Origin: Ampullaceana balthica
Lineage: Eukaryota; Mollusca; Gastropoda; Lymnaeidae
NCBI GenBank assembly: GCA_944989445.1
Contig: CALYLW010000281.1
Location: 198,824-262,823 of the forward strand
Length of the DNA stretch: 64,000 nucleotides
Direction: 5' to 3'
Within the stretch, counting starts at the first letter, position 1. Every line of letters starts with the position of its first letter. The notes beneath the pieces were generated by a model. It had not been told where the DNA came from. It ran no database searches and worked only from the letters and a program-made list of their open reading frames with translations. Shown one piece after another: positions 1 to 64,000 of this stretch. A program made the position numbers and the translations under genes.

Positions 1-2032
1 CCACCAAACATGACACTTACCATCCCACCAAACATAGACACTTACCATCCCACCAAACATAGACACTTACCATCCCACCAAACATGACACTTACCATCCC
101 ACCAAACATGGACACTTACCATCCCACCAAACATAGACACTTACCATCCCACCAAACATAGACACTTACCATCCCACCAAACATGGACACTTACCATCCC
201 ACCAAACATGGACACTTACCATCCCACCAAACATGGACACTTACCATCCCACCAAACATGGACACTTACCATCCCACCAAACATGACACTTACCATCCCA
301 CCAAACATGGACACTTACCATCCCACCAAACATGGACACTTACCATCCCACCAAACATGGACACTTACCATCCCACCAAACATGGACACTTACCATCCCA
401 CCAAACATAGACACTTACCATCCCACCAAACATGGACACTTACCATCCCACCAAACATGGACACTTACCATCCCACCAAACATGGACACTTACCATCCCA
501 CCAAACATGACACTTACCATCCCACCAAACATAGACACTTACCATCCCACCAAACATGGACACTTACCATCCCACCAAACATGGACACTTACCATCCCAC
601 CAAACATGACACTTACCATCCCACCAAACATGGACACTTACCATCCCACCAATCATGACACTTACCATCCCACCAAACATGGACACTTACCATCCCACCA
701 AACATAGACACTTACCATCCCACCAAACATAGACACTTACCATCCCACCAAACATAGACACTTACCATCCACCAAACATAGACACTTACCATCCCACCAA
801 ACATGACACTTACCATCCCACCAAACATGACACTTACCATCCCACCAAACATGACACTTACCATCCCACCAAACATGACACTTACCATCCCACCAAACAT
901 GACACTTACCATCCCACCAAACATAGACACTTACCATCCCACCAAACATGACACTTACCATCCCACCAAACATGGACACTTACCATCCCACCAAACATAG
1001 ACACTTACCATCCCACCAAACATAGACACTTACCATCCCACCAAACATGGACACTTACCATCCCACCAAACATGACACTTACCATCCCACCAAACATAGA
1101 CACTTACCATCCCACCAAACATTGACACTTACCATCCACCAAACATAGACACTTACCATCCCACCAAACATCGACACTTACCATCCCACCAAACATGGAC
1201 ACTTACCATCCCACCAAACATTGACACTTACCATCCCACCAAACATTGACACTTACCATCCCACCAAACATTGACACTTACCATCCCACCAAACATGGAC
1301 ACTTACCATCCCACCAAACATAGACACTTACCATCCCACCAAACATAGACACTTACCATCCCACCAAACATGGACACTTACCATCCCACCAAACATAAAC
1401 ACTTACCGTCCCACCAAACATGGACACTTACCATCCCACCAAACATGGACACTTACCATCCCACCAAACATGGACACTTACCCATCCCACCAAACATGGA
1501 CACTTACCATCCCACCAAACATGGACACTTACCCTCCCACCAAACATGGACACTTACCATCCCACCAAACATGGACACTTACCATCCCACCAAAAATGGA
1601 CACTTACCATCCCACCAAACATGGACACTTACCCTCCCACCAAACATGGACACTTACCATCCCACCAAACATAGACACTTACCCTCCCACCAAACATGGA
1701 CACTTACCATCCCACCAAACATGGACACTTACCCTCCCACCAAACATGGACACTTACCATCCCACCAAACATGGACACTTACCATCCCACCAAACATGGA
1801 CACTTACCCTCCCACCAAACATGGACACTTACCATCCCACCAAACATGGACACTTACCATCCCACCAAACATGGACACTTACCCTCCCACCAAACATGGA
1901 CACTTACCATCCCACCAAACATGGACACTTACCCTCCCACCAAACATGGACACTTACCATCCCACCAAACATAGACACTTACCCTCCCACCAAACATGGA
2001 CACTTACCATCCCACCAAACATTGACACTTAC
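1..2032 (-). repeat. Splice-donor minisatellite, G1 intron 4
   Basis: About 80 tandem units of mostly 25 bp (some 24 bp) run off the left edge. Read on the minus (gene) strand, each unit starts GTAAGTGTC and ends TTTGGTGGGATG. This is the last 21 nt of G1/G2 exon 4 plus the first 4 nt of intron 4, so each unit recreates a 5' splice site of the form ATG|GTAAGT. Variants include an AGG|GTAAGT form, concentrated at about 1520-1990. Open frames through the array are by-products of the repeat and are not genes. Confidence 0.95.
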
Positions 2033-5000
2033 CATCCCACCAAACATCGATATCTCATATTGCCAGTTAGCTGTGTTGATAAAATTGAAATCATCTCTAA
2101 ATATGACAGCTCCTCTCTTCCTTCTACTGGGCAATGTGGCAAGTCCAACTTCGTCGCCTGGCAGATGGATTTAACAGGGGATTTAAGGCAGGGGATAAAT
2201 ATAGGTTTTAAAGTGGAATTTTACAGAGGATTGAAAAGTGCATTGATCATGAGATTTTTACAGAATTAAAAGTGAGAAGAAACAGGTATTTAAGGAAGGA
2301 ATCTACGAGGCATTGTTATCTTTTCTAGGGTTAGATCAGTCTACTGTAGTTTTAACACAAATATGTCCCTAGGTTTATGTGTAAGTGTTTCTTTAGAAGA
2401 TATCAGTATAACCAATTAAGTTTAATTTTCAACAAAAATAAAAAAAATAAATATATATATATTTACAAAAAACAACAACAACAAAACAACAACAACAATT
2501 CCCCCCAGAATAACTGTACATACACTTCTAATGGAATTTTATAGAACCAAATATTTGAATCCAATCAGAGGCAATTCAAAAATAATTGTTAAAAAAAATT
2601 GTGGAGAAAATAAGGGACCGTCCATAAATGACGTCACGAGATTTTTCTCCGATTCTTGCCCCCACCTCCGGCACTCGTCACAAAAACTTAGACCCCCCCC
2701 CCTTTTCAATATGGCGTCACAAATCTTTGACACCCCCTCTAAAAGCCGTATTTTGTAATTGAAAATAAGCATGTCACAAATTACTTTTTTTGTCATTTAA
2801 ATATGTATTTAGTGTAAGGCTGCACTCTAATATCGTAACACGTGTGAAGCCATTTAAAAAGTCATTAAATAAATTGAAGGCAATCAAATATTTGAATGGA
2901 ACTTTTATTTAAAGTAGCGCGCTTTTTTATATGACGTCACATTTCTAAAATACCTCATCCACCTCGTCACACATCGTCACAAATGCGTGACCCACTTCCC
3001 TCCCCTTCGCGCGTGACGGCCCCTAAACATTTTGTTATTGATGGATATTCTATGTTGCTAAAATGTATTCGTACGTAAGAAAACAAAACCCACTGAGGAA
3101 ATATTGACAAACCAGAAGATCAAGAAAGTTTTCCGTTAATGCTAGGGCATACACAAATAAGATAGCCAAACTTCAAGTGCAAGCCAATGTGTTAGATGAC
3201 AAATGTGAGATGGTAAACTCATGATATTATTCTCTTATCCTGTGTTACGGTCGAGGTATTGCAGAAATAGACAGTAATATGTCTGGAGCCTGCTGTATAT
3301 TCTATAATGTGAGTTGTTCGGACATGTCTTTAACACATTCGATAAACCACCACAGTTGTCTTTCCCTCAAATTAGTCAAATGGCGGCCTAACAACACATT
3401 TCCGGTGACAGGCAATCCAAACCAAGGTAACTATTCGATTATATAGACTTTGAATTCTAAGAGACCAATATGTTGCTTTAGTTTACTGTTACGAGCACAG
3501 AGCCTTCTACATATTTTGGCAAGTACAAAAATTCTTTGTGCTTCGCACTTTTCTTGTTACTCTTTTCGTAAACAAATGACGCATGCGTCATTGATGGTAA
3601 CTGCTGAGTTTCAGGCCATTCCTAGAATTTGGGGGATTAAACATCGCGTTATAATAGGCGTATAGGTTTGTGCTTTCGATAGGATTATTCTGAGAGGATT
3701 CAGGTTATTTTATAACAAGTTATTCAGATTAAACATAGAAAGACACACCTGGGTTTGACATAATGATGTTGACATCTCTGTCGGCGGAGATAACACTGTG
3801 ACGCAAGGCATACATTTATAAAAGTTAAAAATAAAATAAAACATGTATCTCAAAATATATCGATTCAACGATCAAATGTGTATGTATGTAAAATGATGGG
3901 TAATTTTGCAGTTTCTACACGCATATTATTTCACAGCGAAATATAATTTTCTAGTGATAATAATAATAATAATTGATAATATATATGTATCCCAGTGAGG
4001 AACCGGGCTCACAGCGCTTTACATGGAGATCATAACATACATATAATAATTAAATAACCATTCATACCATAAAAACAATATAAAGGACAGTACATTACAC
4101 ATAAGCTACGCTAATCATTAAAACAAATGTTGTTTCATTAATTTTGTAAATACATTTTGAAAAGATGCGTCTTAAGTGCAGTCTTGAAGGACTTGGCAGT
4201 TGGAATACTACGGATGTGTAATGGTAGAGAATTCCATTGTTTGGCTGCACAAAAAGAGAATGACCTTTCAACAAAAGTTTTAGTTCGTGTCTTAAGAACA
4301 CAGATAATACATGTGTCTGCAGAAGAGCGTAGCTGACGACTGGGTGAGTAGACCGACAGAAGTTCAGTAAGATAGGAAGGAGATGAGTCAGAAAAGAAGT
4401 TGTGACAGAGAACAGCCAGTTTGTAATCAATACGGGCTTGTATAGATAGCCAATAAAGTGAGTAAAGTAGCGGAGTAACATGGTCATGTTTTTTTGCCTT
4501 AAGAACTAGTCTGGCAGCTGAATTTTGAACTTTCTGTAGTTTTTCAATGCATTGTTTTTGCGCACCTGACAGAAGAGAATTGCAATAATCAATGCGAGCT
4601 AGAACAAGAGCACAGACTAGAGTTAATTATTAATTTCCAAGGCTTCTTTTCGGCCCTTGAAGCTACATAATCGGAGTAGGATACGTCCATTTGTTTATCT
4701 AGCGCCTTACCTGCCAGATGTTTTTTACCCATGCTAAAATAAATTTACTGGCTGAAACGTTGTTTTTAAAGTGTTATTCATCTATTTTAATTTTCTTCGA
4801 AGATAAATAAATATTTTAAAGACAATTTCATGTTTTATTTCGTTACTCGATGTTTGATTATTATGTTTTTTGTTTGTAAGTGAGATAATTTTATTTGGCA
4901 TCTTAGTGTTACAACCGGGCAAGTAGGGTGATGAATAAATAAAATGATTGCATTAAGTTGGAATTATTTATTGTTGAGAGCCGAAACAATGCCTTAGAAA

Positions 5001-13782: not shown

Positions 13783-16700
13783 TTACAAATGTCTGAATTC
13801 GACCCAGTCAATCAACATGGCCGCCTCATCGCCTTGCCAAGTTGGCAACCATTCGTTTCGTGCATTCCAGAAATCTTCAGCGGCGTGCGGCGATGTGTTT
13901 AACCACGGCTTCCTGACTCCGTAGTTGACGTTGTCAGGGAAGAAACCGTTGGTGCCACCAACAGCCACGTTGAAGATCATGTAGAACTGAGGTCGAAGAG
14001 ATGGAAACAAGCATTAGACAAAATAAACTAACTTATATCAAACATATCCTAATTAGAAACATTTTTGTTGTTTTGTTTTTTTTGTTGAAAATATTGATCC
14101 TTTTTTTTTACTACTATTATGGGCATTAAAGCTTTTCTTTGAGCTTTGTTGAGACGGATTTAGACTTGAAACTAGAAGATTATACCGGTTACATCCCGTA
14201 TACACAAGCATTGCTGATTCTTGAACAGCAACAACAACAACAAAAAAAAATCAATAACAACGATATTCAGTATTAAATGTACAGAAATAGGATCATACAT
14301 CTTTGTCGAATGGCGCCATCTTCTCGCCGCCAGCCCAGATGTTGGCACCACTGAATCCACCTTTCTGCCAGAAGTTAGCTCCAGGTAGTACCTCCATGAT
14401 TCTGATGTTATCTACAAACGTTCTGTGAAATTAAACCAAAAAAAAATAAAAATGTCAAACGTGTAGACATCATATGAAATAAAATACAAAGTACACAAAC
14501 AAATAGTGTAATGTAAACAATAAATTTGACGCTTTATTTAAAACCCTTTGTGCAGTCCTTTTCTATATGACATATTACATTATATGAATTACATCCAAAT
14601 TTACTTTAACAGAAACTGATACGGTTTTTAACTATGGACACATTTCCAATGAGGCATATGTATCCAAATGTGCACCAATGTAAGTTCTTAAGTAGCCATT
14701 GGAATATGGTCAAATATGAGTGTTTCAAGGATCCACTTACGATAGGTGGTCAGGTGTCCACTCGAGTTTATAGGTGTGGTAGTCATCATGCCATGATCCA
14801 CGTCTCCTGGAATGGTCAGTAAATGAAAAAGTGACATTTTGTTCTACATCGAACTTTTTTTTCTAAAAAGTGTGTTTAAACAAATTTTATTTCCTCGAAT
14901 TGACAGAAGCCAATAATTTTCTTTAAGGGCGAATATTTTCTTCATGACTTCGAATTCCTAAAAGAACACTAGTGTATCACACCACAACTGATGGTGACAC
15001 GCAATACGATCTACACAACAATACGATGGATGACGCCGATTGCCCAGAATTCCTGTTATTGAAATTCTACGGCAAAGTCACGTTTTTGTTTTTGAAAGAT
15101 GTCATCAGAGTGGCAGAAAATCTACGCCTGCTATGATTGACTGTGTTGACGGCACATTTCCCAACATAAAATTTCAGCAGCGTCCAACTTGGTACCCGCC
15201 TTCTAACCACCCCACCCCTTCGTGTCTGATGACGGCGGTGGGGGGGATGAGTTCATGACTTACTGTTCCCCGTGTGTGAGGCTGTACTTGTTGTTGTCCC
15301 ATGCTGGGCCCCAGTGGAGTGTACTGCTGACAGTGCCGACACCGATATCACCGTTGTTACCTGAGGTAAGACGAACACATTTAAACACACTTATAATATA
15401 GTAAGAAAGGTTTCAGGGGAGTGTACTGCTTACAGTGCCGACACCAATTTCACCGTTATTACCTGTGGTTGGCCAGAAAGTAAGGAGAAAGTGCATAGAA
15501 ATAGAAAGTGGTATGATCATAAAATTATACACTTATCGTAATTTGTTATTGTTTTTAAATCGTTATAATGGAAAAATAGGTTTTAAGGAGAACTCTTGTA
15601 AAAGGGCGAAAGTTAAGACACAGGATCGGCATGTACTACCGCAACTACAGTCGGAAGATGTCTTAAAGTGTCTTCAGAATTTAACGAAACATTGATATCA
15701 ATAGGATTATGACATGCCAATATTGTTTCATAACTGAATAGAGGCCAAAAAATAGTCTAGACTGTTGATATATTTAACTGTGACCAACATTTTTTGTACA
15801 CAAATATTTTCATATCTAACGGGAAAAATCAAATCGATGTAAATGATCAAATTTTAAAAGTAAATCAGTTAAATATTAAAATGAATGAAATGCCATGAAT
15901 TCAATTAGCTGGAACCATCCACTTACTCAATGTTGTTAACGGCATAACAAACTTACCTCTAGATTCCATGATATCAATTTCACCAGAACGAGGCCAGCCA
16001 CCATAGGCGCTGTCTTTTGGCATCATCCAAATAGCTGGTGAAGGTGAGAGGAAAGTTAGGTTTGTCTTTATTTCGTTTCTTCCTCTATCTTATCTTATCT
16101 TATCTATACAGACGCTCCTTCTATGATGATCTGTTGGCAAGTGATGCAGCATTCACAGGCCACGGCTTTGTGGGTTCCACGCATTACCCAGCCGCCTAAT
16201 GTAGTTAGGTACCCATTCGGAGCGGGGTGACTCAGGGATGCCCTAAGCCCCGGGAACAGACCCTTGCCTTCACACGGATTCGAACCCGTGACCATCGGTA
16301 CGGCAGTCCAGTGCGCTGCCACTCGACCACCGCATCCCCAAATCCTCTATTTAATATTGAATAATTTTAGTTACGTAATATTGACCTTTTTTCTCGTGTT
16401 GTTTTTCAAATAAAAAAAAATTACATTGATCAAAGAATAACCTTTAAAAAAATTTAAACAGCAAAATTTTCACAATATAAAATGTATCACAATATAAAAT
16501 GTATCACAATATAAATTGTATCACAATATAAAATGTATCACAATATAAAATGTATCACAATATAAAATGTATCACAATAGTTATAGCTTACCTGGCCATA
16601 TCCAGTCTCCCTTGGGAATCTTGGCCCTAACTTCAACAATGCCGTACCTAAGGGTGGGAATACTTGTGATCTTGCCAGACATGACGGGAGGCAGGAGGCC

Positions 16701-19700
16701 ATATTGTCCTTCTCTGGTGCAGCCGTAGTTGCCATTGTTGGTGCAATAACCCCAGATTGCTAGAAGAGATGTCATAAGTGTTATTATCTTTTCAATTTTG
16801 GCCAGGAATCTTTTATAAAGGAAATATCACTTTAATAAAAAAAAATAGAAGGGAAAACAAAAATTAAAATTTTTGAAAAAGATATTATCATCCCGAATAT
16901 CACGTCACTGTCTCGAAAGCTTCGAGCATTCACAATTTAATGTTGTGAGTATTAATTTTCCAGCCATTGTACGTATTTGCCTAAAATACTGTGAACGTCT
17001 TTAAAGGAAATTGTCTATGTAACTTGTCCGGCCCCTTGTGACATAAGTAAAGTGATTGCCTTCAAAAAAAAAGCTGGTATTAGTTCAAGTGAAAAAAAAA
17101 TAATAATAAATAATTAAAATGTGTTGACTGAGAACATTTCATTTCTCTATTTTAAAAATTTTTTTAAATATATTTTAAAATAAAGTTAAGAAAATGCAGT
17201 AAGCATCGTACAAAAAACAAAAATGAGTTGCGCAGTAAAACGTTTGCCTATGTCCTCAATCTTGATGTTTGTGCATGTGCCTATGTCTTCAATCTTGATG
17301 TTTGTGCATGTGACTATGTCCTCAATCTTGATGTTTGTACATGTGACTATGTCCTCAATGTTGATGTTTGTTCATGTGCCCATGTCCTCAATCTTGATGT
17401 TTCTGGTTGCAACAACAATAGTGCTCCGTGCACGAATCTTAATTCTATTTACACCGTAGCTGGTTTAGTTTTCTAATATTGCTTCATTATGTGCATCTAC
17501 GTCATCTACTTTGTCTCTTCTTCGAAGGCGTGTGTGGGTCTATCCAGTGCGAATTACCCCCCCCCCTTCCTTGTAGCGCATTCTTATACATCCATAGATT
17601 AGATCATGCCTCAGTTCCAATCTTCCCATTTAAGCTGTGCGGCTGCACGGCCACGCAGATATCTGATCTATACCACGCAGCAGTTTAGAATTACCGCGCA
17701 GCAAATTTTGTAAATAATGCACCAAAAAATGTATGCTGCTCAACTTTTCACAGGAGTTTTTTCTTTACTTTGAGCACGGACCAACGAACCATTGCTCACC
17801 TCCTAAAGGTTAGAGATGGGGCCTACGTCACTTTGGAAATTAAGAAGGATTGTCATCCTAGAAAATGTATGTTCTAATCCAACGGTGGCCGATCCGCGGC
17901 TCGCGAGCCGCATGCGGCTCTGTTGTGTTCACATTGTGGCTCGCGTACAATTTATGAAAGATATGTTACAAGGATTACTGGAAGATTTCCAAGCCAGGTT
18001 TAGTGACCCATAGTGCTGCAATGCGGCTCTTAATAATTGTATTATTTTATAATGGCTCTCAGTTACTACAGGTCTGGCCAAACGTGTTCTAGTCAATATC
18101 CATCTTCAAGGGCATCGTGTACATAAATACGACACATCGATGTCGGTAGCTTGTTATGATGGGAAAATGGCGAAATATAAACAAATGAAAAATAAAGAGT
18201 AAAAAAAAATGAAATATAAAAATACCACGTTTTGTAAATGGACTAAGATGAATTAAAGCGCACCCCATATTTTACAGTTAGTTGCACTCGATGCAAGGAT
18301 TGTCAATGATTCCAAAGCACATTTGAATAAATTCTTAGACTGGTTGTCCGAAGATTATTTTCTGCTTTCTATTGCATTTGAAAAACATGTTCTTTAAAAA
18401 TGCCCTTTTTAAATAATATATTTCTGGTACGTCACTTACTGGCCATGTCCATTTTTCCGTGATGGAGGAAGTTCTCGTCAAATCGTGGGTCATCCGTTGT
18501 TGGGGTCTTGGAAAGAAAACAGTTCAATTGTTGTTTTTAGTTGTTGTTATATCAATTGTTGGTATGTTAGTTATATATATTTTATTTGTTGTTATTTTAG
18601 TTGTTGTTGTATTTTATTTGTGTATTTTAGTTGTTGATATTTTTTTACGTAATTTTGTCATAGAATACATATTAGCCAACTTATTTGAATCGTTCCACAC
18701 CTATTTAATAACACATTTTAAGCAATTTTTTCGATCAATAACGAAAAATAACTATTCAATGACATGATATCCTTGAACACAAATAAAACCGTTTAAATAG
18801 TGATCTAAATTATTTTTTATGTGAGGTTTAACAATTGTATTTGATGTTTAACAAATTATTTTATTTTTTAAATAGCATCAAAATCAAATTAATCATTTTC
18901 CCAACTACCGGGACTTCTCATAAATAGGAAATATTTAGTATCAAAAGTGTCGATTAATCGAAAGTCAACTCACCGGCTTAAGGTAGAGAACTCCATTTCT
19001 TGTAAACGTGTTCCTGGCTTCAGGTGTGTACACCTGGAATTCCCAGTTCTAAAAATAAAGAAATTCAGTTTTATTTTAAAATTAAAGCTATCTTTTCCTT
19101 TAAATTCTATTTCCTATAATATTCCGACTGACCATGCCACCAAACATAGACTATTGCCATCCCAACAAACATTGACACTTACCATCTCACCAAAAATAGA
19201 CACCTACCATCCCCACCAAACATAGACACTTACCATCCCACCAAACATAGACACTTACCATCCCACCAAACATAGACACTTACCATCCCACCAAACATAG
19301 ACACCTACCATCCCCACCAAACATAGACACTTACCATCCCACCAAACATAGACACTTACCATCCCACCAAACATAGACACTTACCATCCCACCAAACATG
19401 GACACCTCATATTTCCAGTTGGCCGTGTTGAGAGAGTTGAAATCATCTCTGAAGATGACAGCTCCTCTCATACGTCTGCCGGGCAGTGTGGCAACTCTTT
19501 TGTTGGTGCCTGGCAGACATAATGTAAGTGTGGAAAAGATTACAGGCAGTTAAACTCAAGTTTGCAAGGGTAAAATACTCACATGTAACATACTGAGACT
19601 AGAACTGGCAGAGTGGTTATTGTGAAGACATGCTTAGATTGATGAGTTTATGTACCCTATTTTCATTACTTCAATAATTATTGATTAACAAAAACTGGAA

Positions 19701-22700
19701 GCAAAATGATGTACCGTAGTAGTGTTTTTGAATTTATTCTGTTAAGTGATTATTAAATTATGGCTAAAAATTAGGGCTGCGGAAATTATCGATTAATCTC
19801 TCGATTAATCGTTTAAAAATTGTATCGATTAAAATGATTTTAATCGATTAAAAATTCGATTAAAATTAAAGAAAATATTTATAATATTTTATAAAAAATT
19901 TATTAATAAATAATTTATTGTTAATAATTAATAATAATTTATATCTTTTTTTACGTACAAACATCTCCCGCGTAATATTAAAATTTATTTTATTAATGTA
20001 TGTGGACCGGCAGACTTAAACTAAATAAAATAATGTAAAAAAAATATTTTTTTAAAAAGGACACGCTTTTATTTACATATAGAAAGTGCACTATCTCTAT
20101 GACCATCAGAAGTGGTTTAATTTTACGTTACAAGATTTGAAGGAAGGATGGATGGATGGATGGATTGATACAACATACAAACAGTGTGACTTAAATAAAA
20201 GCGTGTAATAATAATAAAATGGCTGACGGCATTAGCGCTGGGAAACAGGGGAAATAACCCAATAAAATAAATTAAAAAGTCAATTACCTGTTTTTGTAAC
20301 TTCCATTGAAATGATCAGTTTTATGACGCCATAAATTTCTATTTTTGGCTTTAATCGAAATTATCGATTAATTAATCGATAATTTTTCAAAAGTTAACGA
20401 TTAAAATTAAATTAATCGATAACAGCCCTACTAAAAATTAATGTTAAATTACAATTAATTTCAAGGATTTGTTTTAATTTAAACAGTCGCAGTTCTATTT
20501 TACATTTATTGAAGAAATAGCTTTCAATTTATTTAAGGCACAATGAACTTTTATCTCTTTCCAAGTTTAGAACAGCTAACTAATCTGGATTGCACAGTCC
20601 GATCTTAAAAGATGATTGAACCTAAATCTAGATTACTCACCTAAATTGAGCGTCACTCTGTCAGTGGTCTCCAGGATGTGCCCTTCATTGTTGTACAGCA
20701 CTGCATAGGCCACAATGTTGTCAGCACCACTCAAATTGATGTCACGTGTCTGGTACTGCCAGCCCTCAGCTACGTCATGATGACAAATATTAGTTTAGTT
20801 GGCTTCCCACAAATAGAGGGCACATTTAATTCCCTCTCTGTGTTTCAACTCTCATTGGTACAAGTGAATTTTTTATACACGAATTTTAATTGAAATATAG
20901 CATTATACCTACATTCATCTATAACAATAATATAACCAATCTATTTAGTTATAGAACATTTATACGAAATATTAATGTATCTGCTTTGGAGAAGTATACA
21001 GAGTTAGTTTCCTTTATAATGTACCCTCTTTGTGATAGAGATTATTAGTGTACTACTTTTATAAAGGCGAATCTTTCTAGAGTGAGTTTCTAAAAGGTTC
21101 TTAATCTTTCTACATGAATCTGTTTCTGATGCATTCTAGCACGTAACTATTTAAGGCACGGAGACTCTCCTCTGGGGGAGATGTGGACTGTTGTCGTCAG
21201 GAGATGTGGACTGTTGTCGTCAGACTGATGAATTTCCTTTTTCGATATATGTACCGCTAATCTCACATCATTTTTAAACAGACCTCAGTGTTACATTTGT
21301 TTTTAAAGGACCGTGACTTAAATCTGAAACTTTAACAAGTGGCCTGAGTCCATTATATTCAAGTAATCGTAGACGCTAGGGGGCCGTCCAAAAAGTACGT
21401 CACGCTCCAGAGGGGGGGAGGGGTGTAAGAAAGTGTGACAGTTTGTGACAGGGGGAGGGGTCCGGTCATGCGTGACGTCACGGTGTTTTATATTACATTT
21501 TAATACTTTTGTTAATAAAAAACTAAATTTTTGTTCGAAAGTGTGACGTACTTTTGGGGGGGGTCCTAGGTTTGTGACAGTTTGTGACAGGGGGAGGGGG
21601 GAGTTCAAAATGGTCAAAAATAGCGTGACGTACTTTATGGACGGCCCCTAGACTATCACCAGATATAAAACTAGCTACTCTCCATCTTTGTCATGATATA
21701 CCCTCTCTTAACCTCCTACTTTATTTCTCTAAAACAAAACCCACAAATTTAAAAGCAAAGCGTTCACATAAATTATATTTGCGTTCTCCGTGCGTGAGTT
21801 TGGCGACCCCTAATGGGAAACAAGAGTTTTTTTAAAGACAAGGAAGATAACCGAGTTGTAAAAGTGAGCTCTGAGTTGTTGCACATGTAACACGTACTTA
21901 CTTGTTAGAGTTCCCCGCCCTTGATGGTTTTGATGATTTACGATGTAATGAAAGACTACAGCGTCGGCATTTCTGTCGTTTCCTTTCAACAAATACAATG
22001 TAGTGGAGCCATATATTAGCGTATATTAGCATATATTAGCATACACGTTTATCATGCCCAGCAAACAATAGTTCATAAGGATTACATTACCATGAGATTG
22101 ACAATCATTGAACATTTAAACGTAAATACATATTCATAAGTTTCAAGGACACATTAATTATGCTAATTATATTTATTGATCTGTATATGTCGATTCATTT
22201 CATAGGCCCAAAATTCAAAATGAATACCGTAAGTTTTTTACATTGTACATCCAACTGAAAGAAAATATAATTTTCGATCTAGGCCCATGGTAGCGCTATA
22301 AGAAAAGGTAGCCTGTGTAACCTAAGATAGCAATTATAACCTAAAGTTTCATCAGTAAACTAAAGTAGCCATTATAACCTAAGATTGCTTCTGTAACCTA
22401 AGATAGCCATATAACCTAAGGAAGCAAATATAATCAAAAATAACCACTGTAACCTAGGGTAGTCATTATAACCTAAGGTAACCCATATAAACTAAGGTAG
22501 CCACAATAAACTAAAGTAGGCACTATAACCTAAGGTAGCCACCATAAACTAAGGTAGCCACTATAACCTAAGGTAGCCACCATAAACAAAGGTAGCCACC
22601 ATACACTAAGGCAGCCACGATAACCAAAAGAGCCTCCACAGTCTAACTAGCCACTATAAACTAAGGTAGCCACTATAACCTAAGGTAGCCACCATAAACT

Positions 22701-22968
22701 AAGGTAGCCACTAAAACCTAAAGTAGCCTCCATAGTCTAAGTAGCCACTATAACCTAAGGTATCCACTATAACCTAAGGTATCCCATGTAACCTAAGGTA
22801 TCCCATATAACCTAAGGTAGCCACCATAAACTAACGTAGCCACTATAACCTAAGGCAGCCCTTACCTTGTAAGTTGAAGTGAAGAACCGGAGGGTTGTAC
22901 CTGATGGATACGTGGGCGGACAGCACTGTGTGGACAGCCACACAGGCAAACAGCAGGTACTTGATCAT
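13783..22968 (-). CDS. G2: beta-1,3-glucan-binding protein / GH16 laminarinase-like, complete
   Basis: Twelve coding exons (minus): 22866-22968, 21902-21982, 20641-20769, 19385-19509, 18974-19048, 18440-18506, 16592-16759, 15957-16034, 15264-15360, 14741-14806, 14299-14422 and 13783-13986. They total 1317 nt or 438 aa, with all junctions GT-AG and in frame. Residues 1-17 are a signal peptide (MIKYLLFACVAVHTVLS). Up to about residue 105 it is CBM39-like (AHVSIRYNPPVLHF, GWQYQTRDINLSGADN). GH16 follows: GAVIFRDDFN, then GYCTNNGNYGC, then LRYGIVEVRAKIP, then GEIDIMES with E268, D270 and E273. The C-terminus is FYMIFNVAVGGTNGFFP and WQGDEAAMLIDWVEF. The intact ExDxxE motif means beta-1,3-glucanase activity is possible; many arthropod relatives lost it. 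The ATG sits 4 nt after a CAG acceptor. Introns carry a SINE, two hAT MITEs and five minisatellites, and exon 9's 5' end is duplicated in intron 8. Confidence 0.93.
15405..15463 (-). repeat. Duplicate of the G2 exon 9 acceptor and exon start, in intron 8
   Basis: The minus strand reads CCACAG, then GTAATAACGGTGAAATTGG, then TGTCGGCACTGTAAGCAGT. This copies the true exon 9 boundary (15264-15360; GTAACAACGGTGATATCGG) with a few substitutions. The copy is about 101 bp upstream of the functional one, includes roughly 47 nt of exon plus the acceptor, and lacks the rest of the exon. Confidence 0.85.
16085..16339 (-). mobile_element. tRNA-derived SINE
   Basis: The minus strand begins GGGGATGCGGTGGTCGAGTG, giving a tRNA-like head with an A-box (TGGTCGAGTGG) and a B-box (GGTTCGAATCC) about 45 nt apart. 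A tRNA-unrelated body follows (GGGTACCTAACTACATTAGG), ending in a (GATAA)n tail at about 16085-16110. It lies in G2 intron 7 in sense orientation. Confidence 0.85.
16471..16579. repeat. 17-bp minisatellite beside G2 exon 7 donor
   Basis: About six copies of CACAATATAAAATGTAT lie in G2 intron 7. The array stops 12 bp short of the exon 7 donor and does not include the splice site. Confidence 0.9.
17248..17402. repeat. 33-bp minisatellite, G2 intron 6
   Basis: Nearly five copies of a unit containing CTATGTCCTCAATCTTGATG then TTTGTGCATGTGA. The two overlapping plus-strand open frames here are repeat artefacts. Confidence 0.9.
17880..18086. mobile_element. hAT-type MITE with 8-bp target duplication
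   Basis: The ends read CAACGGTGGCCGATCC and, at the right, GGTCTGGCCAAACGTG, which are imperfect inverted repeats. Flanks are TTCTAATC and TTCTAGTC, an 8-bp target-site duplication with one mismatch, as expected of hAT elements. The interior is rich in GCGGCTC and non-coding. It lies in G2 intron 6. Confidence 0.75.
19130..19384 (-). repeat. Splice-donor minisatellite, G2 intron 4
   Basis: About ten intronic units of the same boundary repeat as at 1-2032 directly follow the exon 4 donor. Minus-strand units start GTAAGTGTC and end TTTGGTGGGATG. The distal three units are degenerate (for example GCCATCCCAACAAAC on plus). Two units have an extra C and a GTAGGT donor core, four units apart, so a four-unit block was duplicated. 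Confidence 0.95.
19772..20430. mobile_element. hAT-type non-autonomous element, perfect 8-bp target duplication
   Basis: Terminal repeats are TAGGGCTGCGGAAATTATCG on the left and CGATAACAGCCCTA on the right, with ATCGATTAATCG-rich subterminal repeats. Both flanks are CTAAAAAT (19764-19771 and 20431-20438), a perfect 8-bp duplication. At 659 bp with no open frame it is non-autonomous. It lies in G2 intron 3. Confidence 0.88.
21378..21649. mobile_element. MITE-like element, GGCCGTCC-ended family, copy 2
   Basis: The left end is AGGGGGCCGTCCAAAAAGTACG and the right end is CGTACTTTATGGACGGCCCCT. The interior contains repeated GTGTGACAG and GGGGGAGGGG tracts. It is closely related to the copy at 27051 in the opposite orientation. 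It lies in G2 intron 2. Confidence 0.8.
22310..22860. repeat. ~20-bp minisatellite at G2 exon 1 donor
   Basis: About 26 diverged copies of CTATAACCTAAGGTAGCCAC lie in G2 intron 1. The array reaches to within about 7 nt of the exon 1 donor (minus AAG|GTAAGG), but the units do not contain the donor itself. Confidence 0.9.
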
Positions 22969-36600: not shown

Positions 36601-39600
36601 TACCTCTGCATCTAACTTCTACCACTGCATCTAACTTCTACCTCTGCATCTAACTTCTACCTCTGCATCTAACTTCTACCACTGCATCTAACTTCTACCA
36701 CTGCATCTAACTTCTACCTCTGCATCTAACTTCTACCGCTGCATCTAACTTCTACCTCTGCATCTAACTTCTACCTCGGCATCTAACTTCTACCTCTGCA
36801 TCTAACTTCTACCACTGCATTTAACTTCTACCTCTGCATCTAACTTCTACCTCTGCATCTAACTTCTACCACTGCATCTAACTTCTACCTCTGCATCTAA
36901 CTTCTACCACTGCATTTAACTTCTACCTCTGCATCTAACTTCTACCACTGCATCTAACTTCTACCACTGCATCTAACTTCTACCTCTGCATCTAACTTCT
37001 ACCACTGCATCTAACTTCTACCTCTGCATCTAACTTCTACCTCTGCATCTAACTTCTACCACTGCATCTAACTTCTACCACTGCATCTAACTTCTACCAC
37101 TGCATCTAACTTCTACCGCTGCATCTAACTTCTACCACTGCTGCATCTAAATTCTACCACTGCATTTAACTTCTACCACGTATCTAACTTCTACCACTGC
37201 ATCTAACTTCTACCACTGCATCTAACTTCTACCACTGCATCTAACTTCCGCTAACCCTCTTCGAAGTCTTTGCATTAGACCAAGAGCGCCTAGCCTAGTT
37301 AGTGAAAAAGGCAAACGCCCGGCTATTTAATGTTGACGTATTCATGTGCTACTCACCTGGCCACAGCCAGTCACCGCGAGGAATCTTGGCCCTGACCTCA
37401 ACTGTGCCGAACCTGAGAGTGGGCACGCTCAAAACTTTGCCGGACATGACGGGCGGCAAAATTTCGGCACCGCCATTTCTGACACAGCCATTATTGCCGT
37501 CGTTGGTGCAAGTACCGAAAATAGCTGGAAAAAAGGTTTGTGAAAATAGCTGGAAATATAAGGTTTGTGAAAATAGCTGGAAATAAGGTTTGTGAAAATA
37601 GCTGGAAATAAGGTTTGTGAAAATAGCTAGAAATAAGGTTTATGAAAATAGCTGGAAATAAGGTTTTGAAAATAGCTGAAAAAATAAGGTTTATGAAAAT
37701 AGCTGAAAATAAGGTTCATGAAAATAATTCTAATAGATTACATTGTCTCTTTTTAAACATAAAAATATTGAGTTTTGAGGATATGGATATGATATTGCAG
37801 ATTTTAAAAATAAATTTAATGATAAATGTTTGCATTGTTAGATCATGGGCAAACTCTCTAAGACAGTCATTTGTTAAAGACTTTAAAATTCCAACATCCA
37901 GAAATTGCGTAAATGTTTAGCTGAGCTGCCAACATGAGACTTACACACTGACCCGGATAGGACCAACTTGCCACCTTACAAAAAGGTGTATGAAAACAAT
38001 GTAGACACCGACAAGACTTACCCCTCAAGTCCATGTGTCCAGAGTGGAGGAAGTTTTCGCTGAATCTGGAGTCACTGACAGTGGTAGTCTTTGGGATTAA
38101 AGATTAGAAGATAGACAGAGTGATTCATAGTGCGTCATTCATTGAGGGTCATTCATTGAGGGTCATTCATTGAGGGTCATTCATAGAATTCAATGGCTTT
38201 TAAGTTAATTTATGTAAAACTTTTCTTGAAGAACTGCTTGGGTTTTCGTAATGTAAACACTTTGGTTCTATGTAATTAGGATTAGTCGTAGATGTTCAAA
38301 ACAACTGTTAGGGATTTAATATTAATAACTACAATACAAACATGAAAAGAAGATTCTTTGAAAAGAACATATGAGACAAAATAATAACACACATTACTAA
38401 CGACTCACAATAATGACATTTAATTTGTATATGAAACAAAAAACAAAGCAAACAAAACAAAAAGCAACTAGTAATATGGCCATAAATAATGGTATAACAT
38501 ATACCCGTAATTAATGGTATAACTTATGGCCATAAGTAATGGTATAACATATGGCCATAAGTAATGGTAGAACTTATGGCTCATAGGTAATGGTATAACA
38601 TATGGCCATAAGTAATGGTATAACATATGGCCATAAGTAATGGTAGAACATATGGCTATAGGTAATGGTATATCATATGGCCATAGGTCATAAGTAATGG
38701 TATAACATATGGCCATAAGTAATGGTATAACATATGGCCATAAGTAATGGTATAACTTGTGACCATAAGTAATGGTATAACATATTGCCATAAGTAATGG
38801 TATAACTTGAAATAGCTATGACAAAATACAAATGAGTATATTTCTAATGGCATCGTTAAGTTTCCCTATGTCATCGTGTTTGGTTTTTTTTAAGGTGAAG
38901 ACAACACTTCCACTTACAGGCATTAAGTAAAGATGTCCGTCACGGGCGAAGACGTTCTTGTGGTCGTTGGTATACACCTGGAACTCTCCGTTCTGGTGAA
39001 AACATATTTTGGTGGACATATGAGCAGTAAATCTTTACATTCTGTTTAAAAGTTTCTTTAACGAAAATCTAGGTCATATCTTCATATTTCAGCAAGTTTC
39101 AAGGGTCATATTATACGAGATACTTGCCAGATACAAAGAAATAAGTTTCTAAAGTATCAGTTGACTGTTGGTGTGGATTATAAGATTAAAGATTTAAATA
39201 TCTCAAGTAATTTTCTTTAATCCTCGAGTCTGAAGTCCCTTACGTATCCTCCATACATTGACACTTCCGGTGTCCACTTTGATCTGTCGAAGGAATTAAA
39301 GTCGTCCCTGAAGATGACCGCTCTAATGCGCCTGGGAGAAGGGATGACAACCGCAGCTTGTCTGGCTGAGGAGCAAACAACAACAACAATCGCTGTGCAC
39401 ATGTTTGTTCTGACACGTGATTCAAAGACTTAGAAATCATTATGTTTTTAGTTTCCGTTATTGAATAGATCATACAGTTCATAAAAAGTAAATTCAATGG
39501 AAAATTTGATTACTTTAAAACTAATTGATAGAATATTGTGTTCTGAATTTTTAAACAAAATTTAGTACATTTCTTAAGTTGATAAAGTCTTACATTCAAA

Positions 39601-43700: not shown

Positions 43701-43814
43701 ACGACTATTTTCTTAGTGCCCGTGACAAGCTTGTTACGTCTCTGGACCCTGCCATTCCTGTAACAGTCTCATATTATTTGCTCAAATGTTAGAAAAGGCA
43801 AAGACATACAGATA
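40767..43814. other. Upstream region of G3
   Basis: No protein-coding gene was recognised. It contains a direct duplication with core AGATAGGTGTTTGCAGCTA (about 42194-42236 and 42244-42286), a 15-bp repeat AAGAAACTAAGTAGT (about 43640-43690), and a fragment with TATATAGCGCTGTACACC (about 41940). The G3 promoter and 5'UTR exon should lie in the left part, but no confident element was placed. Confidence 0.6.
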
Positions 43815-48360: not shown

Positions 48361-51300
48361 TCCTGAACTCAACATAATCGATGATGAGGGCTGCGTTGTC
48401 TCCCTGCCAGGTGGGGAGCCAGGCGTTGTGGGCGTTCCAGAAATCTGTTTTGGGGTGAGGGGAGCCGTTCTGCCATGGCTTGTTGACGCCACCGTAGAGG
48501 TTACCATCCGGGAAGTAACCGTTGGTGCCGCCCACGGCAACGTTGAACATGATGTAGAACTGTGGTTGGTGAGACGACAGAGGTGGTATTATTGGTGAGA
48601 CGACAGAGGTGGTATTATTGGTGAGACGACAGAGGTGGTATTATTGGTGAGACGACAGAGGTGGTATTATTGGTGAGACAACAGAGGTGGTATTATTGGT
48701 GAGACAACAGAGGTGGTATTATTGGTGAGACAACAGAGGTGGTATTATTGGTGAGACAACAGAGGTGGTATTAATGGTGACACAACAGAGGTGGTATTAT
48801 TGGTGACACAACAGAGGTGGTATTATTTGTGAGACAACAGAGGTGGTATTATTGGTGAGACAACAGAGGTGGTGTTATTATTGGTGAGACAACAGAGGTG
48901 GTATTATTGGTGAGACAACAGAAGTGTAGTTATTAGTGAGACAACAGAGGTGGTATTATTGGTGACACAACAGAGGTGGTATTATTGGTGAGACGACAGA
49001 GGTGGTATTATTGGTGACACAAGAGAGGTGGTATTATTGGTGACACAACAGAGGTGGTATTATTGGTGAGACAACAGAGATGGTATTATTGGTGAGACAA
49101 CAGAGGTGGTATAATTGGTGAGACAACAGAGGTGGTGTTATTATTGGTGAGACAACAGAGGTGGTATTATTGGTGAGACAACAGAAGTGTAGTTATTAGT
49201 GAGACAACAGAGGTGGTATTATTGGTGAGACGACAGAGGTGGTATTATTGGTGAGACAACAGAGGTGGTATTATTGGTGAGACAACAGAGGTGGTATTAA
49301 TTGTGACACGACAGAGGTGGTATTATTGGTGACACAACAGAGGTGGTATTATTGGTGAGACAACAGAGGTGGTATTATTGGTGAGACAACAGAGGTGGTA
49401 TTATTGGTGAGACAACAGAGGTGGTGTTATTATTGGTGAGACAACAGAGGTGGTATTATTGGTGAGACAACAGAAGTGTAGTTATTAGTGAGACAACAGA
49501 GGTGGTATTATTGGTGACACAACAGAGGTGGTATTATTGGTGAGACGACAGAGGTGGTATTATTGGTGACACAACAGAGGTGGTATTATTGGTGAGACGA
49601 CAAAGGTGGTATTATTGGTGACACAACAGAGGTGGTATTATTGGTGACACAACAGAGGTGGTATTATTGGTGAGATAACAGAGGTGGTATTATTGGTGAG
49701 ACAACAGAAGTGTAGTTATTGGTGAGACAACAGAGGTGGTATTATTGGTGAGACAACAGAGGTGGTATTATTTGTGAGACAACAGAAGTGTAGTTATTGG
49801 TGAGGCAATAGAAGTTGTTTTCAATTATGTAATCAAATTTATTTGAGAAAATTAGAATTATTGTTATTTACTTATTTGCAAATTAAATCTTACATTTGTA
49901 TATCTATTCTTTATGTTGGACTAAATTTGTTAAAATATTTCATCGGCATTCATTAGTTATTTTTAAGGCACACTACTTACATCTTGATCAAACGGTGCCA
50001 TTTTACTGCCAGATGCCCAAAGATTGTTGCCACCAAATCCACCTTTTTGCCAGAATCCACCAGCAGGGGGGACAACTGACATGATTTGTTGGTTATCAAT
50101 GAATGTCCTGGTGATAAAACAGGTCACAGCTTTAATTTAAAATCTATATATATAATCTTATATATATAATTATATCTATATATATAATCTTATATATATA
50201 ATTATATCTATATATATAATCTTACATATATAATTATACTTATATATATAATTCACCAAAGCGAGTATTTGCAAACAAGCATGACGAAGGAAGCTCGCTG
50301 GGGTCGACCAATGTCTCGAGTCCGAGAATTGTGCTTGCGTTCACTTGCGTTGTTCCTTCACATAATAATATGAGATTCGTAGTGTATTGGTTATCACGCT
50401 CGCCTTACACGGGGAAGGTCTGGGGTTCAAGCCCCAGCGGAAACATTGTTTTTTTAAATTTTTAATAATGTGTGTTTGTACCCGTTCTTTTCCCGCCTTT
50501 ATTACCAACATATCTGACCCTCGCTAGGGTCGGCCAATCAGTTTATGGTTGACAAGCTATGTTGGTGAAGGGTGGTGTGCAGGTAGATAACCGCTGTGCA
50601 ACTGTCTCGAGACCAACAATCCGTCGGTGGTTCCTCACTGACGTTCACCCACGTTGTTTTGATTTCTTCTGCTGTAGTTTGTGTCCGTTCTTTCCCTACT
50701 TTCTTTGAACAATCCATGAGCAAGTCTACGGCGTATGCTAAGCCGCGGGGCATATCTAGTTACATTCATTTCCACAAATAGTTCAGACAGCAAATGATCA
50801 ATTTTGTCGTTTAACTTTACATTAAAATACAGTGAGAATTTTACATATAATATTTAATCTACATGTTGAAAGAACTATTTATTTTTTTATTTGCCAGGTG
50901 GCATTTAAATTTATTTCTAATTTGGTTAAATTTTTTTGCACGATAAAATATTAAAGTTAGAATTTAATTGTTGAGGTCTTACAGGATGTGGTCATGTGTC
51001 CACTCAAGTCTCCAGGTGTGGAAGTCGTTGTGCCAGTTGGCTGTGTGTCTGAAAATGTTGAATTGGAATTTATTCATGAAACTTAAAAATTATCAAAAGA
51101 CAAAAATATCAACTAGGTACTTTCATTTCTAGCACATTGATTGTTATGTGGAAACACTTAAACGTTTATTTAGAAATATCACTTATAGGGGAAAAATAAT
51201 GGTATAGAACTATTTTCATATGTCTCTAGTTCTAATTATGAAATTTAGACACAAAAAAGCTTAAGTTTTTTCCTTCTAGATAAACTTCTGGTTTTATCAA

Positions 51301-54300: not shown

Positions 54301-57300
54301 AAGTTAAGCCGGAGATAACAATTTTGTTTCAAGGCTATGTTTTAGCACTCTATGAACGTCTTATCTTTCTTTATTCCCTTTTCTCTAACAAAGCGAATTT
54401 TAAGCTTGTTTTCTAGGCTGTGGGTCTCCATTGAACCAATGACACCATAAGATTTTCCCTGTCGACACGTTCGATGTTTTTGGTCTCATATGTTACCGTT
54501 AGCTCCATAAGCAACATCCCGTTCCACCATCCACCCACCCGCCCCCCGTAGCTCCATAAACAACATCCCCTTCCACCATCCACCCCCCGTAGCTCCATAA
54601 ACAATATCCCCTTCCACCATCCACCCCCCCGGGTTAACCCACAAACTGAACGCCATTCATGTTTTACTGGTCAACTCACAAATCCTCCGTACATGGAGAC
54701 TTCCGGCGTCCACTTGGAGTGGTCGTACGAGTTGAAGTCATCCCTGAAGATGACCGCCCGGATACGTCTGGGAGAAGGTGTGGCGAGGACCTGTCGCCCT
54801 GTTTGCAAGGAAGTTGTCAATTTTATTTTATCTTCAAATATTTTTGTTGACTTCCTAATAAATGAACCGATCCACTGCACTTAGCGATTCGTATCAAACA
54901 AATGAGACATGCAAACAGGTCAGGTGGGGAAAATAACTGCATCAGTTCATTAATGTTTAGACAGAGAACGGAAAGATGATTCCCAGTTTTAAAATCTTTA
55001 AGGTTATTTTAATAAAGTATTAAAGAACTTTTATAACAAATAGGAACAAAAATCAAATTTTTAAAAATAAATTATTATAATTAATTAGTTAGCTCATAAC
55101 ATTTAACTGTGAAAGTCATTGTGTACAAAAACCAAAACGTATTACGATAACAGTACCTAGAGAAGGTGAGGTCTATGGCTAACAGTAACTAAAGAAACCC
55201 AAGGCCCAAGCCTCATACAAACAGTACATAGAGAAGCCTCACACTAACAGTACCTAGAGAAAGTGAGGCGCGCTCCGTGGTCTCCAGGATGTTGCCTCTC
55301 ATGTAATAAATGACAGCGTAGGCAGTGATGGCATCAGCGCCATCTACGTTGACGTCACGAGTCTGATATTGCCAACCTTCACCTACAGATATATGGAATA
55401 AACAAAGTACGTGTCAATAACGTAACACTGCTTTAGTATGGTTTCTTGACAAACAACTCATGCTCTCATCAGTGAATGACGCAATTTTCTGAACTCAGCC
55501 GGAAAAGTCCCCAATCCAAAAAAAAACTCGTCAAATCCCCCAGCCAATCAGCACTCATCCACTCCTCCAAGCCAGTCAGCACTCATCCCATCCTCCCAGC
55601 CCATCAGCACTCATCCACTCCTCCAAGCCAGTCAGCACTCATCCCATCCTCCCTGCCAATCAGCACTCATCCACTCCTCCAAGCCAGTCAGCACTCTTCC
55701 CATCCTCCCAGCCCATCAGCACTCATCCACTCCTCTAAGCCAGTCAGCACTCATCCCTTCCTCCAGCCAATCAGAACTCATTCACCCCACCCAGCCCATT
55801 AGCACTCATCCCTTCCTCCAGCCAATCAGAACTCATCTACTCCTCCCATCCAATCAGCACTCATCCATTCCTCCCATCCAATCAGCACTCATCCACTCCT
55901 CCCATCCAATCATCACTCATCCACTCCTCCCATCCAATCAGCACTCATCCACTCCTCCCATCTAATCAGCACTCATCCACTCCTCCCTGCCAATCAGCAC
56001 TCATCCACTCCTCCCTGCCAATCAGCACTCATCCACTCCTCCCATCCAATCAGCACTCATCCACTCCTCCCAGCCAATAAGCACTCATCCACTCCTCCCA
56101 GCCAATCAGCACTCATCCACTCCTCCCAGCCAATCAGCACTCATCCACTCCTCCCAGCCAATCATCACTCATACACTCCTCCCATCCAATCAGCACTCAT
56201 CTACTCCTCCCATCCAATAAGCACTCAGCCCATCCTCCCATCCAATCAGCACTCATCCACTCCTCCCATCCAATCAGAACTCATCAACTCCTCCCATCCT
56301 GTCATAATGTATTAAGTCATCTCAAGAAATCAGAACACAACTCATGCGGACCTAATGTAAGACTTTGATGAGACGTAGACTAGCAAAACAAAGGATGTTT
56401 TTAATATGACATGCATTAACTTTAGAAAGCTCTCACGAAGAATTCTCTTGTATGTTGCCAATTTTAAAATAATCCTAATGCATATTTCAAAGTGCGTCCT
56501 TAGACATTTAAAAGGTACGGGATAGGCTACCATCCACAATTTAGACAAAAAACAAAGCGTTTAAATAATGGGACGAAAAAGTAAAACAATTTTAAGAACT
56601 TACTTGTTTCCGTGCTTTTGCCCTGGAATGCAACATTTTTAATGACGTAATGAAATACGACGCCGTCTGCTGCTTTGTCAGAACCTGGTATACATGAAAT
56701 AAATTCAAAGTAAACGTTTATCTATGGTCAGCAACATAGGTTATGTTTATCTATGGTCAGCAACATAGGTTATGTTTATCTATGGTCAGCAACATAGGAT
56801 ATGTTTATCTATGGTCAGCAACATAGGTTATGTTTATCTATGGTCAGCAACATAGGATATGTTTATCTATGGTCAGCAACATAGGTTATGTCAGCTGTGT
56901 TCAGATATATATATATGTATTTACATTTTAAAAAAACTCGTTTTCTATAAATAAAAATTGTTGTGTAAATATTTACATGACTATTTACATGTCTATTTAC
57001 ATGTCTATTTAAATGTCTATTTACATGTCTATTTAAATGTCTATTTAAATGTCTATTTAAATGTCTATTTACATGTCTATTTAAATGTCTATTTAAATGT
57101 CTATTTAGATGTCTATTTACATGTCTATTTAAATGTCTATTTACATGTCTATTTAAATGTCTATTTACATGTCTATTTAAATGTCTATTTACATGTCTAT
57201 TTATATGTCTATTTACATGTCTATTTAAATGTCTATTTACATGTCTATTTAAATGTCTATTTACATGTCTATTTAGATGTCTATTTACATGTCTATTTAA

Positions 57301-63585: not shown

Positions 63586-63593
63586 CTGTGGTT

Positions 63594-64000
63594 GGTGAGA
63601 CAACAGAGGTGGTATTATTGGTGAGACAACAGAGGTGGTATTATTGGTGAGACAACAGAGGTGGTATTATTGGTGAGACAACAGAGGTGGTATTATTGGT
63701 GAGACAACAGAGGTGGTATTATTGGTGAGACAACAGAGGTGGTATTATTGGTGGGATAACAGAGGTGGTATCATTTGTGAGACAACAGAGGTGGTATTAT
63801 TGGTGAGACAACAGAGGTGGTATTATTGGTGAGACAACAGAGGTGGTATTATTGGTGGGATAACAGAGGTGGTATCATTTGTGAGACAACAGAGGTGGTA
63901 TTATTTGTGAGACAACAGAGGTGGTATTATTGGTGAGACAACAGAGGTGGTATTATTGGTGAGACAAAAGAGGTGGTATTATTGGTGGGATAACAGAGGT
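63594..64000. repeat. 26-bp minisatellite, G5 intron 11
   Basis: About 15 units of GGTGAGACAACAGAGGTGGT then ATTATT continue past the right edge. A GGTGGGATAACAG...ATCATTTG variant recurs at least twice, marking a duplicated block. No AG occurs on the gene strand, as in G4. Confidence 0.95.

What the first reader, a model, noticed from the sequence alone, without database searches (positions are those of the whole stretch)
1..2157. A 2-kb minisatellite built from a 5' splice site: about 80 donors in a row after G1 exon 4
The 25-bp unit equals the last 21 nt of exon 4 (encoding VSMFGGM in G2) plus the first 4 nt of the intron (GTAA). Each unit restores ATG|GTAAGT in gene orientation, so U1 snRNP is offered about 80 near-consensus donors. 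Using a donor one or two 25-bp units downstream shifts the frame; the third unit brings a TAA in frame. The 24-bp units keep the frame and add eight residues. Either the first donor is strongly preferred, or the array creates splice noise, buffers donor mutation, or sequesters U1.
Basis: partly seen in the sequence, partly recalled or inferred. Interest (0 to 1): 0.9.

Follow-up and report, generated by a model that had tools for sequence, protein, structure and literature searches.

The report
Tandem splice-donor minisatellite in snail genes
In what looks like a freshwater-snail immune-type gene the exact end of an exon, including its splice signal, is repeated more than 80 times in a row into the next intron; it is a striking example of a kind of repeat already described in amphioxus and in a human gene, and it offers a natural test of how cells pick the right splice site among many identical ones.

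Summary
Window 1-2047 is a minisatellite of 82 units (mostly 25 bp). On the minus strand it begins inside the end of exon 4 (2033-2157) of a GH16/beta-1,3-glucan-binding-protein gene, and every unit restores GTAAGT (82 of 82). The array meets an N run just left of the window, so its full length is unknown. It is not unique: four paralogs of the cluster carry it at the same exon end, with about 49, 2.8, at least 82 and 11 copies, and these hold all 107 genome copies of an exact 24-mer. In each, only the first donor gives an open in-frame join to exon 5; GA and G2 remain under strong protein constraint. The cluster has other splice-junction minisatellites, including an acceptor array. Two of seven other donor arrays sampled elsewhere in the genome also start inside an exon end. 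Such 'mirage' minisatellites are known from amphioxus, and the human ABCA7 VNTR has a similar design. Their positions are compatible with random seeding, and donor conservation is not significant. Best reading: new member of a known kind, tolerated because the exon-most donor is used. Splice noise and U1 roles remain untested for lack of RNA data.

The parts
2033..2157 (-). G1 exon 4 (GH16/GNBP gene), ending ISMFGGM | GTAAGT
1..2047 (-). G1 donor array: 82 units of 24-26 bp, each with GTAAGT; cut off at base 1, where the contig has an N run
19385..19509 (-). G2 exon 4, ending VSMFGGM | GTAAGT
19127..19407 (-). G2 donor array, 11 units, 7 with GTAAGT, degenerate at the intron side
18974..19048 (-). 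G2 exon 5 (NWEFQVYTPEARNTFTRNGVLYLKP), joined in frame only from donor 1
37517..37726 (-). G3 acceptor array: 8 units of about 25 bp, each with a pyrimidine-rich stretch, AG and CTATTTTC as at the start of exon 7
37357..37524 (-). G3 exon 7
55208..55261 (-). G4 exon 3 donor: small degenerate junction-spanning duplication (26 bp, 2.1 copies); paralog G5 has a 32-bp array at the same donor outside the window
48566..49812 (-). G4 intron 11: 26-bp array ending 6 nt from the last exon (does not include the acceptor AG)
63592..64000 (-). G5 intron 11: homologous 26-bp array, also ending 6 nt from the last exon; continues beyond the window

Best explanation
This is a 'mirage' minisatellite: a short tandem duplication that happened to span an exon-intron junction and then grew into the intron by ordinary minisatellite turnover. 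A 25-bp piece of an ancestral exon 4 end (21 nt of exon plus GTAA) was duplicated before, or spread by gene conversion among, four genes of one clade in what is probably a lymnaeid snail, and copy numbers then drifted apart (2.8 to at least 82). The coding exon is untouched because the original junction stays at the exon side of the array. Splicing most likely commits to the exon-most donor, which is the first one transcribed and the one that gives the shortest exon, and the rest is removed with the intron. Shown: anatomy, shared position in four paralogs, that only donor 1 keeps an open frame, protein constraint between GA and G2. Inferred: that donor 1 is the one used in the cell, and that the extra donors are mostly neutral.
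For: The unit equals the exon 4 end plus intron start, in register. An exact 24-mer of the unit occurs 107 times in the 1.097-Gb genome, all on one strand, and counting it in the four arrays gives 31 (GA), 2 (GB), 68 (G1) and 6 (G2), which is 107 of 107. Only donor 1 is frame-keeping and open: 1 of 47 GTRAGT donors in GA, 1 of 2 in GB, 1 of 82 in G1, 1 of 7 in G2. In 80 of the 122 homologs held a pattern for the exon 4/5 join matched; none of the 80 shows extra residues there; 42 did not match (see evidence against). GA and G2, with about 49 and 11 copies, have dN/dS 0.054 over exons 4-12 (328 codons, dS 0.25). The cluster holds further arrays that touch a splice junction: G1 exon 9 donor (26 bp, 20 copies), G5 and G4 exon 3 donor, G3 exon 7 acceptor. 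Of the 7 separate AGGTAAGT arrays seen in the listing, 2 start inside a coding exon end. In amphioxus such arrays are reported not to interfere with regular splicing (PMC3087553 section 16; PMC3902484 one passage).
Against: No RNA data: donor use is not shown. In human ABCA7 a donor VNTR does go with an isoform that keeps one unit, and exon 19 skipping rises and expression falls with its length (PMC5954066 passages), so full neutrality may be wrong. One homolog model, a Pomacea record that its source labels low quality (P0068), does show extra residues near the exon 4/5 join, and three sacoglossan models (P0001, P0027, P0042) skip exon 5. GTAAGT is intact in 138 of 146 units (47/50, 2/3, 82/82, 7/11), which could hint at constraint. 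GB exon 3 looks frameshifted, so GB may not be a working gene. A rule that the intron-proximal of two equal donors tends to win (recalled) would predict the opposite choice.
Confidence: 0.8

Rival explanations
1. Length-dependent splice noise: a fraction of transcripts uses donors 2, 3 and so on, giving frameshift or stop and nonsense-mediated decay, so array length tunes the output of each gene, along the lines of ABCA7.
For: All GTRAGT donors in the arrays are as strong as donor 1 by U1 pairing, and every alternative one is non-productive. In ABCA7 one-unit retention is observed, while exon 19 skipping rises and expression falls with VNTR length (PMC5954066 passages).
Against: No RNA here. 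In ABCA7 the retained-unit event itself was not affected by length. Protein constraint between GA and G2 is strong despite about 49 and 11 copies. Amphioxus mirages are reported to splice normally.
Confidence: 0.12
2. The donors are kept by selection, as a U1-binding platform that secures the first donor against mutation, enhances splicing or protects the intron from premature polyadenylation.
For: 82 of 82 donors are intact in G1. Distinct interior variants fall 15 in the 15 exonic positions against 2 in 7 donor positions. The exon 4 donor of the array genes is stronger (-11.0) than that of the array-free paralogs G3, G4, G5 (-5.1 to -5.5).
Against: The skew is not significant (P = 0.057). 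Four of 11 G2 units have lost GTAAGT. Copy number falls to 2.8 in GB. The stronger donor may simply come from the duplication, because the next copy supplies GTG after GTAA.
Confidence: 0.06
3. Assembly artefact or collapsed repeat.
For: An N run of 1376 bases touches the array in G1.
Against: Four paralogs carry it with different copy numbers, variants and far edges; in GA, GB and G2 both edges are readable. G1 shows an inner higher-order pattern (units with ATG and AGG alternating).
Confidence: 0.02

Closest known systems
'Mirage' minisatellites of amphioxus (Adh3, globins BflGb6 and BflGb9, troponin C; similar duplications in PGBD5)
   Same: Minisatellite-like tandem duplication of an intron-exon boundary, at 5' or 3' boundaries, unstable in copy number, concerted evolution inside the cluster and exclusion of its edges; reported not to disturb splicing (PMC3087553, section 16 read; PMC3902484, one passage seen).
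   Different: Here probably a lymnaeid snail; 25-bp unit with at least 82 copies in G1 against 6 and 3 units of 150-160 bp in the two BflGb6 haplotypes; shared by four paralogs with synonymous distances of about 0.25 to 1.3; donor intact in 138 of 146 units.
ABCA7 intron 18 VNTR (human)
   Same: 25-bp unit, array starts at the donor of an exon, the first two bases of the VNTR are the GT of that donor, about 12 to 427 units (PMC5954066, passages seen).
   Different: The ABCA7 VNTR as described starts at the GT, so it does not visibly copy exon sequence (inference from the passages); it is polymorphic and disease-associated, which is unknown here.
Intronic minisatellites near alternative exons (C. 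elegans CeRep25B)
   Same: Minisatellites in introns linked to splicing choices (PMC4039745, passages seen).
   Different: In the passages seen, not built from the splice junction itself.

Membership tests
Mirage minisatellite (duplicated intron-exon boundary) | Tandem units span an exon-intron boundary and contain exon sequence | tested here: met
   Unit = 15 (G1) to 21 nt of the exon 4 end + GTAA in the four genes
Mirage minisatellite (duplicated intron-exon boundary) | Splice signals are repeated in the units | tested here: met
   GTAAGT in 138 of 146 units
Mirage minisatellite (duplicated intron-exon boundary) | Copy number is unstable | tested here: met
   2.8, 11, about 49 and at least 82 copies in paralogs; variation between individuals not testable here
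Mirage minisatellite (duplicated intron-exon boundary) | Regular splicing is not disturbed | not testable with these tools
   Only indirect: donor 1 alone is productive, protein conserved
ABCA7-type donor VNTR | Isoforms with retained repeat units | not testable with these tools
   No RNA data
GH16 / beta-1,3-glucan-binding protein gene (host gene) | GH16 domain and homology to named BGBPs | tested here: met
   G2 product: PF00722 E 9.2e-15; 76% identical to a Physella acuta BGBP-like record

The most novel reading that the evidence does not exclude
The splice-junction array acts as a homogenising template for the coding exon itself: array units and exon ends of the paralogs evolve in concert by gene conversion, so an intronic minisatellite dictates the last 5-12 codons of exon 4 and the donor strength of a family of immune-type genes, while array length sets the share of productive splicing in each gene.
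Probability: 0.12. Interest if true: 0.75.

Novelty: new member of a known kind. Interest (0 to 1): 0.5.

Why it matters
Four paralogs with one shared exon end and 2.8, 11, about 49 and at least 82 repeat units are a ready-made dose series for the question of how the spliceosome chooses among equal 5' splice sites: exon-most, first transcribed, or intron-proximal. It also shows duplicated splice junctions outside amphioxus: in a gastropod genome they occur in several genes, at donors and at an acceptor, including an ABCA-type transporter, the family of the human ABCA7 VNTR.

Tried and rejected
1) Enrichment of minisatellites at splice junctions: 7 of 47 intronic arrays in 69 introns (of 77; the others lack a readable exon) touch a junction against 4.4 expected under uniform placement with up to 15 nt of overlap into exons allowed (P 0.13; within 5, 10, 20 and 30 nt P 0.10, 0.07, 0.14 and 0.03). 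The 7 are not independent (GA, GB and G2 share one array; G4 and G5 another). Not claimed. G1 intron 4 is not among the 69. Exon borders were set by script and a few are off by some bases (for example G2 exon 10).

2) Genome-wide excess of tandem donors: three AGGTAAGT in a row give 4404 matches against 3496 for the reversed pattern. Matches are counted, not arrays, and large arrays dominate; treated as no evidence of enrichment. I did not measure how often such an array would meet an exon by chance, so 2 of 7 shows existence, not excess. For the other 5 I saw no recognisable exon at the array edge, by eye only, with no database search. My first test of these edges looked at the first perfect donor, which in 5 of the 7 is not the array edge; redid it with TRF edges and left the count at 2 of 7.

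3) The idea that homolog records starting at MFGGM (P0004, P0005) betray array-derived transcripts: dropped, because other records start at the equivalent methionine with a different sequence (P0050 MFGGR, P0057 MYGGM).

4) Constraint on GTAAGT: 15 against 2 distinct variants over 15 and 7 positions, P 0.057. Left out before the count: the last three units of GA and of G2 as edge units, all of GB, positions 23-24 (2 variants) and the variable base 25.

5) A further genome scan with AGGTGAGT never ran because the machine was busy; no result.

6) Of 2761 homologs the first 120 were listed; 63 of these were read as sequences, and all 122 records held went through the pattern.

Full report
WHAT IS THERE. 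Window 1-2047 is one tandem array (TRF period 25, 82.4 copies, 96% matches). In gene orientation (minus strand) it follows exon 4 of a gene whose first four exons lie between 7992 and 2033. Cut into units it holds 82 complete copies: 66 of 25 bp, 15 of 24 bp, 1 of 26 bp, and all 82 keep GTAAGT. Units near the exon alternate ATG and AGG before the GT, an inner higher-order pattern. The window lies on contig C281 of a 1.097-Gb assembly. The 1376 bases directly left of it are N, so the array may be longer, and exons 5 and 6 of this gene were not found.

THE GENES. The window and its flanks hold seven genes of one family in tandem, all on the minus strand: GA, GB (left of the window), G1, G2, G3, G4 and G5. 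The product of G2 has a GH16 domain (PF00722, E 9.2e-15) and is 76% identical to a Physella acuta beta-1,3-glucan-binding-protein-like record over its full length. In a tree GA, GB, G1 and G2 group with a Lymnaea stagnalis protein (P0007) with support 0.975, and G3, G4 and G5 with another (P0009) with 0.929; G4 is 90% identical to P0009, G1 59% to P0007. The species is therefore probably a lymnaeid snail; this is inference. G1 and GB have lost the acidic residues of the GH16 motif (GVIQIMES and GAINLMDS against GEIDIMES; that these are catalytic is recalled).

THE ARRAY IS SHARED. An exact 24-mer of the unit occurs 107 times in the genome, all on the reverse strand. Counted in the four arrays it gives 31 (GA), 2 (GB), 68 (G1) and 6 (G2), so 107 of 107 lie there. 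By TRF or unit count GA has about 49 copies (C281:174033-175255), GB 2.8 (184946-185015), G1 at least 82, G2 11. All start at the same donor of exon 4. G3, G4 and G5 have no such array there; G4 has an unrelated one 48 nt into the intron. Donors are intact in 47 of 50, 2 of 3, 82 of 82 and 7 of 11 units.

ONLY ONE DONOR WORKS FOR THE PROTEIN. For every GTRAGT in the arrays I joined exon 4, the intervening array and exon 5 (exon 5 of G2 used for all). Only donor 1 gives an open, in-frame product: 1 of 47, 1 of 2, 1 of 82 and 1 of 7. Pairing with the U1 5' end is -11.0 kcal/mol or slightly better for all of them. Of 122 homologs held, 80 matched a pattern for the exon 4/5 join and none of those showed extra residues there; 42 did not match. 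Among the 42 many are more distant proteins with an uninterrupted but differently spelled join (GGYNWEVQ, GGYNWEIQ); P0001, P0027 and P0042 skip exon 5; P0068, a record labelled low quality, has extra residues near the join; for those without the exon 4 motif one search shows only their first residues, so their joins were not inspected. GA and G2 differ by dS 0.25 and dN 0.014 over exons 4-12, so these genes stay constrained with about 49 and 11 units in a row. GB exon 3 looks frameshifted.

THE EXON END EVOLVES WITH THE ARRAY. The last 36 nt of exon 4 are identical in GA, GB and G2 although GB and G2 differ by dS 1.05 over exons 4-12. Of 267 twelve-codon windows compared between GB and G2, 2, this one included, are as similar; the rest of exon 4 differs at 25 of 87 nt. 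A rough chance of no synonymous change is 0.009. In G1 the identity stops 15 nt from the junction, and for G1 against G2 the exon end is not unusual (41 of 273 windows as similar). Gene conversion between array units and exon ends would explain the GA/GB/G2 identity; a strong local constraint cannot be excluded.

MORE JUNCTION ARRAYS. G3 exon 7 has an acceptor array of 8 units with AG|CTATTTTC; 6 of the 7 extra acceptors lead to a stop, one (102 nt upstream) is open. G5 exon 3 has a 32-bp donor array with CTAG|GTA; 5 further AG|GT donors in that intron all lead to a stop; G4 has a degenerate relative. G1 exon 9 has a second donor array (26 bp, about 20 copies) that reaches one base into the exon; of 24 GTAAGT in that intron only the first is open; whether its unit copies exon sequence is not clear. 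Elsewhere in the genome I fetched the 5' edges of the 7 separate AGGTAAGT arrays that appear in the listing (first 100 of 4404 matches). In 2 of 7 the array edge lies about 20 nt inside an open exon whose end is repeated in the units: an ABCA-type nucleotide-binding-domain exon (L064; E 3.1e-22 to ABCA3) and a cysteine-rich exon (L063; only a sub-threshold EB-module match).

IS THE POSITION SPECIAL? Minisatellites fill 14.8 of 52.3 kb of the readable introns of the cluster. Seven of 47 arrays touch a junction where 4.4 are expected (P 0.13). So junction arrays need no special cause: in introns this rich in minisatellites some will span a splice site, and those can survive because the exon-side junction stays intact.

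COMPARISON. Duplicated intron-exon boundaries with repeated splice signals are called 'mirages' in amphioxus Adh3, globin and TnC genes, with similar imperfect duplications in PGBD5; they occur at 5' and 3' boundaries and are reported not to interfere with splicing (PMC3087553, section 16 read; PMC3902484, one passage). Human ABCA7 intron 18 has a 25-bp VNTR that begins with the exon 18 donor, ranges from about 12 to 427 units, and goes with an isoform that keeps one unit; expression falls and exon 19 skipping rises with length (PMC5954066, passages). The listings of my searches with minisatellite, VNTR, splice and mirage terms (one search was on U1 competition) showed no molluscan splice-junction minisatellite; an abalone gene has a 27-bp intronic minisatellite, with no mention of a splice junction in the passages seen (PMC6905558). 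That is a statement about these listings only.

MECHANISM. Most likely, slippage or unequal exchange duplicated 25 bp across the junction, and the array grew into the intron. Exon definition, or commitment to the first transcribed donor, then keeps donor 1 in use (inferred). That this runs against the preference for intron-proximal sites seen with duplicated donors (recalled) is what makes the locus useful.

Noticed in passing
L064 (G000:C1:3735100-3735860): An ABCA-type transporter exon (best match to the second nucleotide-binding domain of ABCA3) ends in a 41-bp donor array; [quoted passage not shown]
   Followed up: partly
C281:168147-176749 against window 13786-22968: GA and G2 are nearly identical in protein from exon 4 to 12 (dN 0.014) but far apart in exons 1 and 3 (dN 0.34; GA exon 2 not found), which suggests recombination or gene conversion with a break near intron 3.
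   Followed up: partly
C281:185948-185953: GB exon 3 shows an apparent frameshift; the gene may be a pseudogene or the assembly may hold an error.
   Followed up: no
window 48566-49812 and 63592-64000: G4 and G5 share a 26-bp array that ends 6 nt before the last exon and repeats the upstream stretch of the acceptor, without its AG.
   Followed up: partly
P0053 (Biomphalaria glabrata beta-1,3-glucan-binding protein record): The predicted protein carries a long tail of VIDTLAQ repeats after the GH16 domain, as if a minisatellite had been read into the coding sequence.
   Followed up: no
window, introns and intergenic stretches of G1-G5: Minisatellites are very dense here: 70 TRF rows in 64 kb (some overlapping), including arrays of 3.4 and 3.7 kb at 33870-37248 and 43814-47541.
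   Followed up: partly
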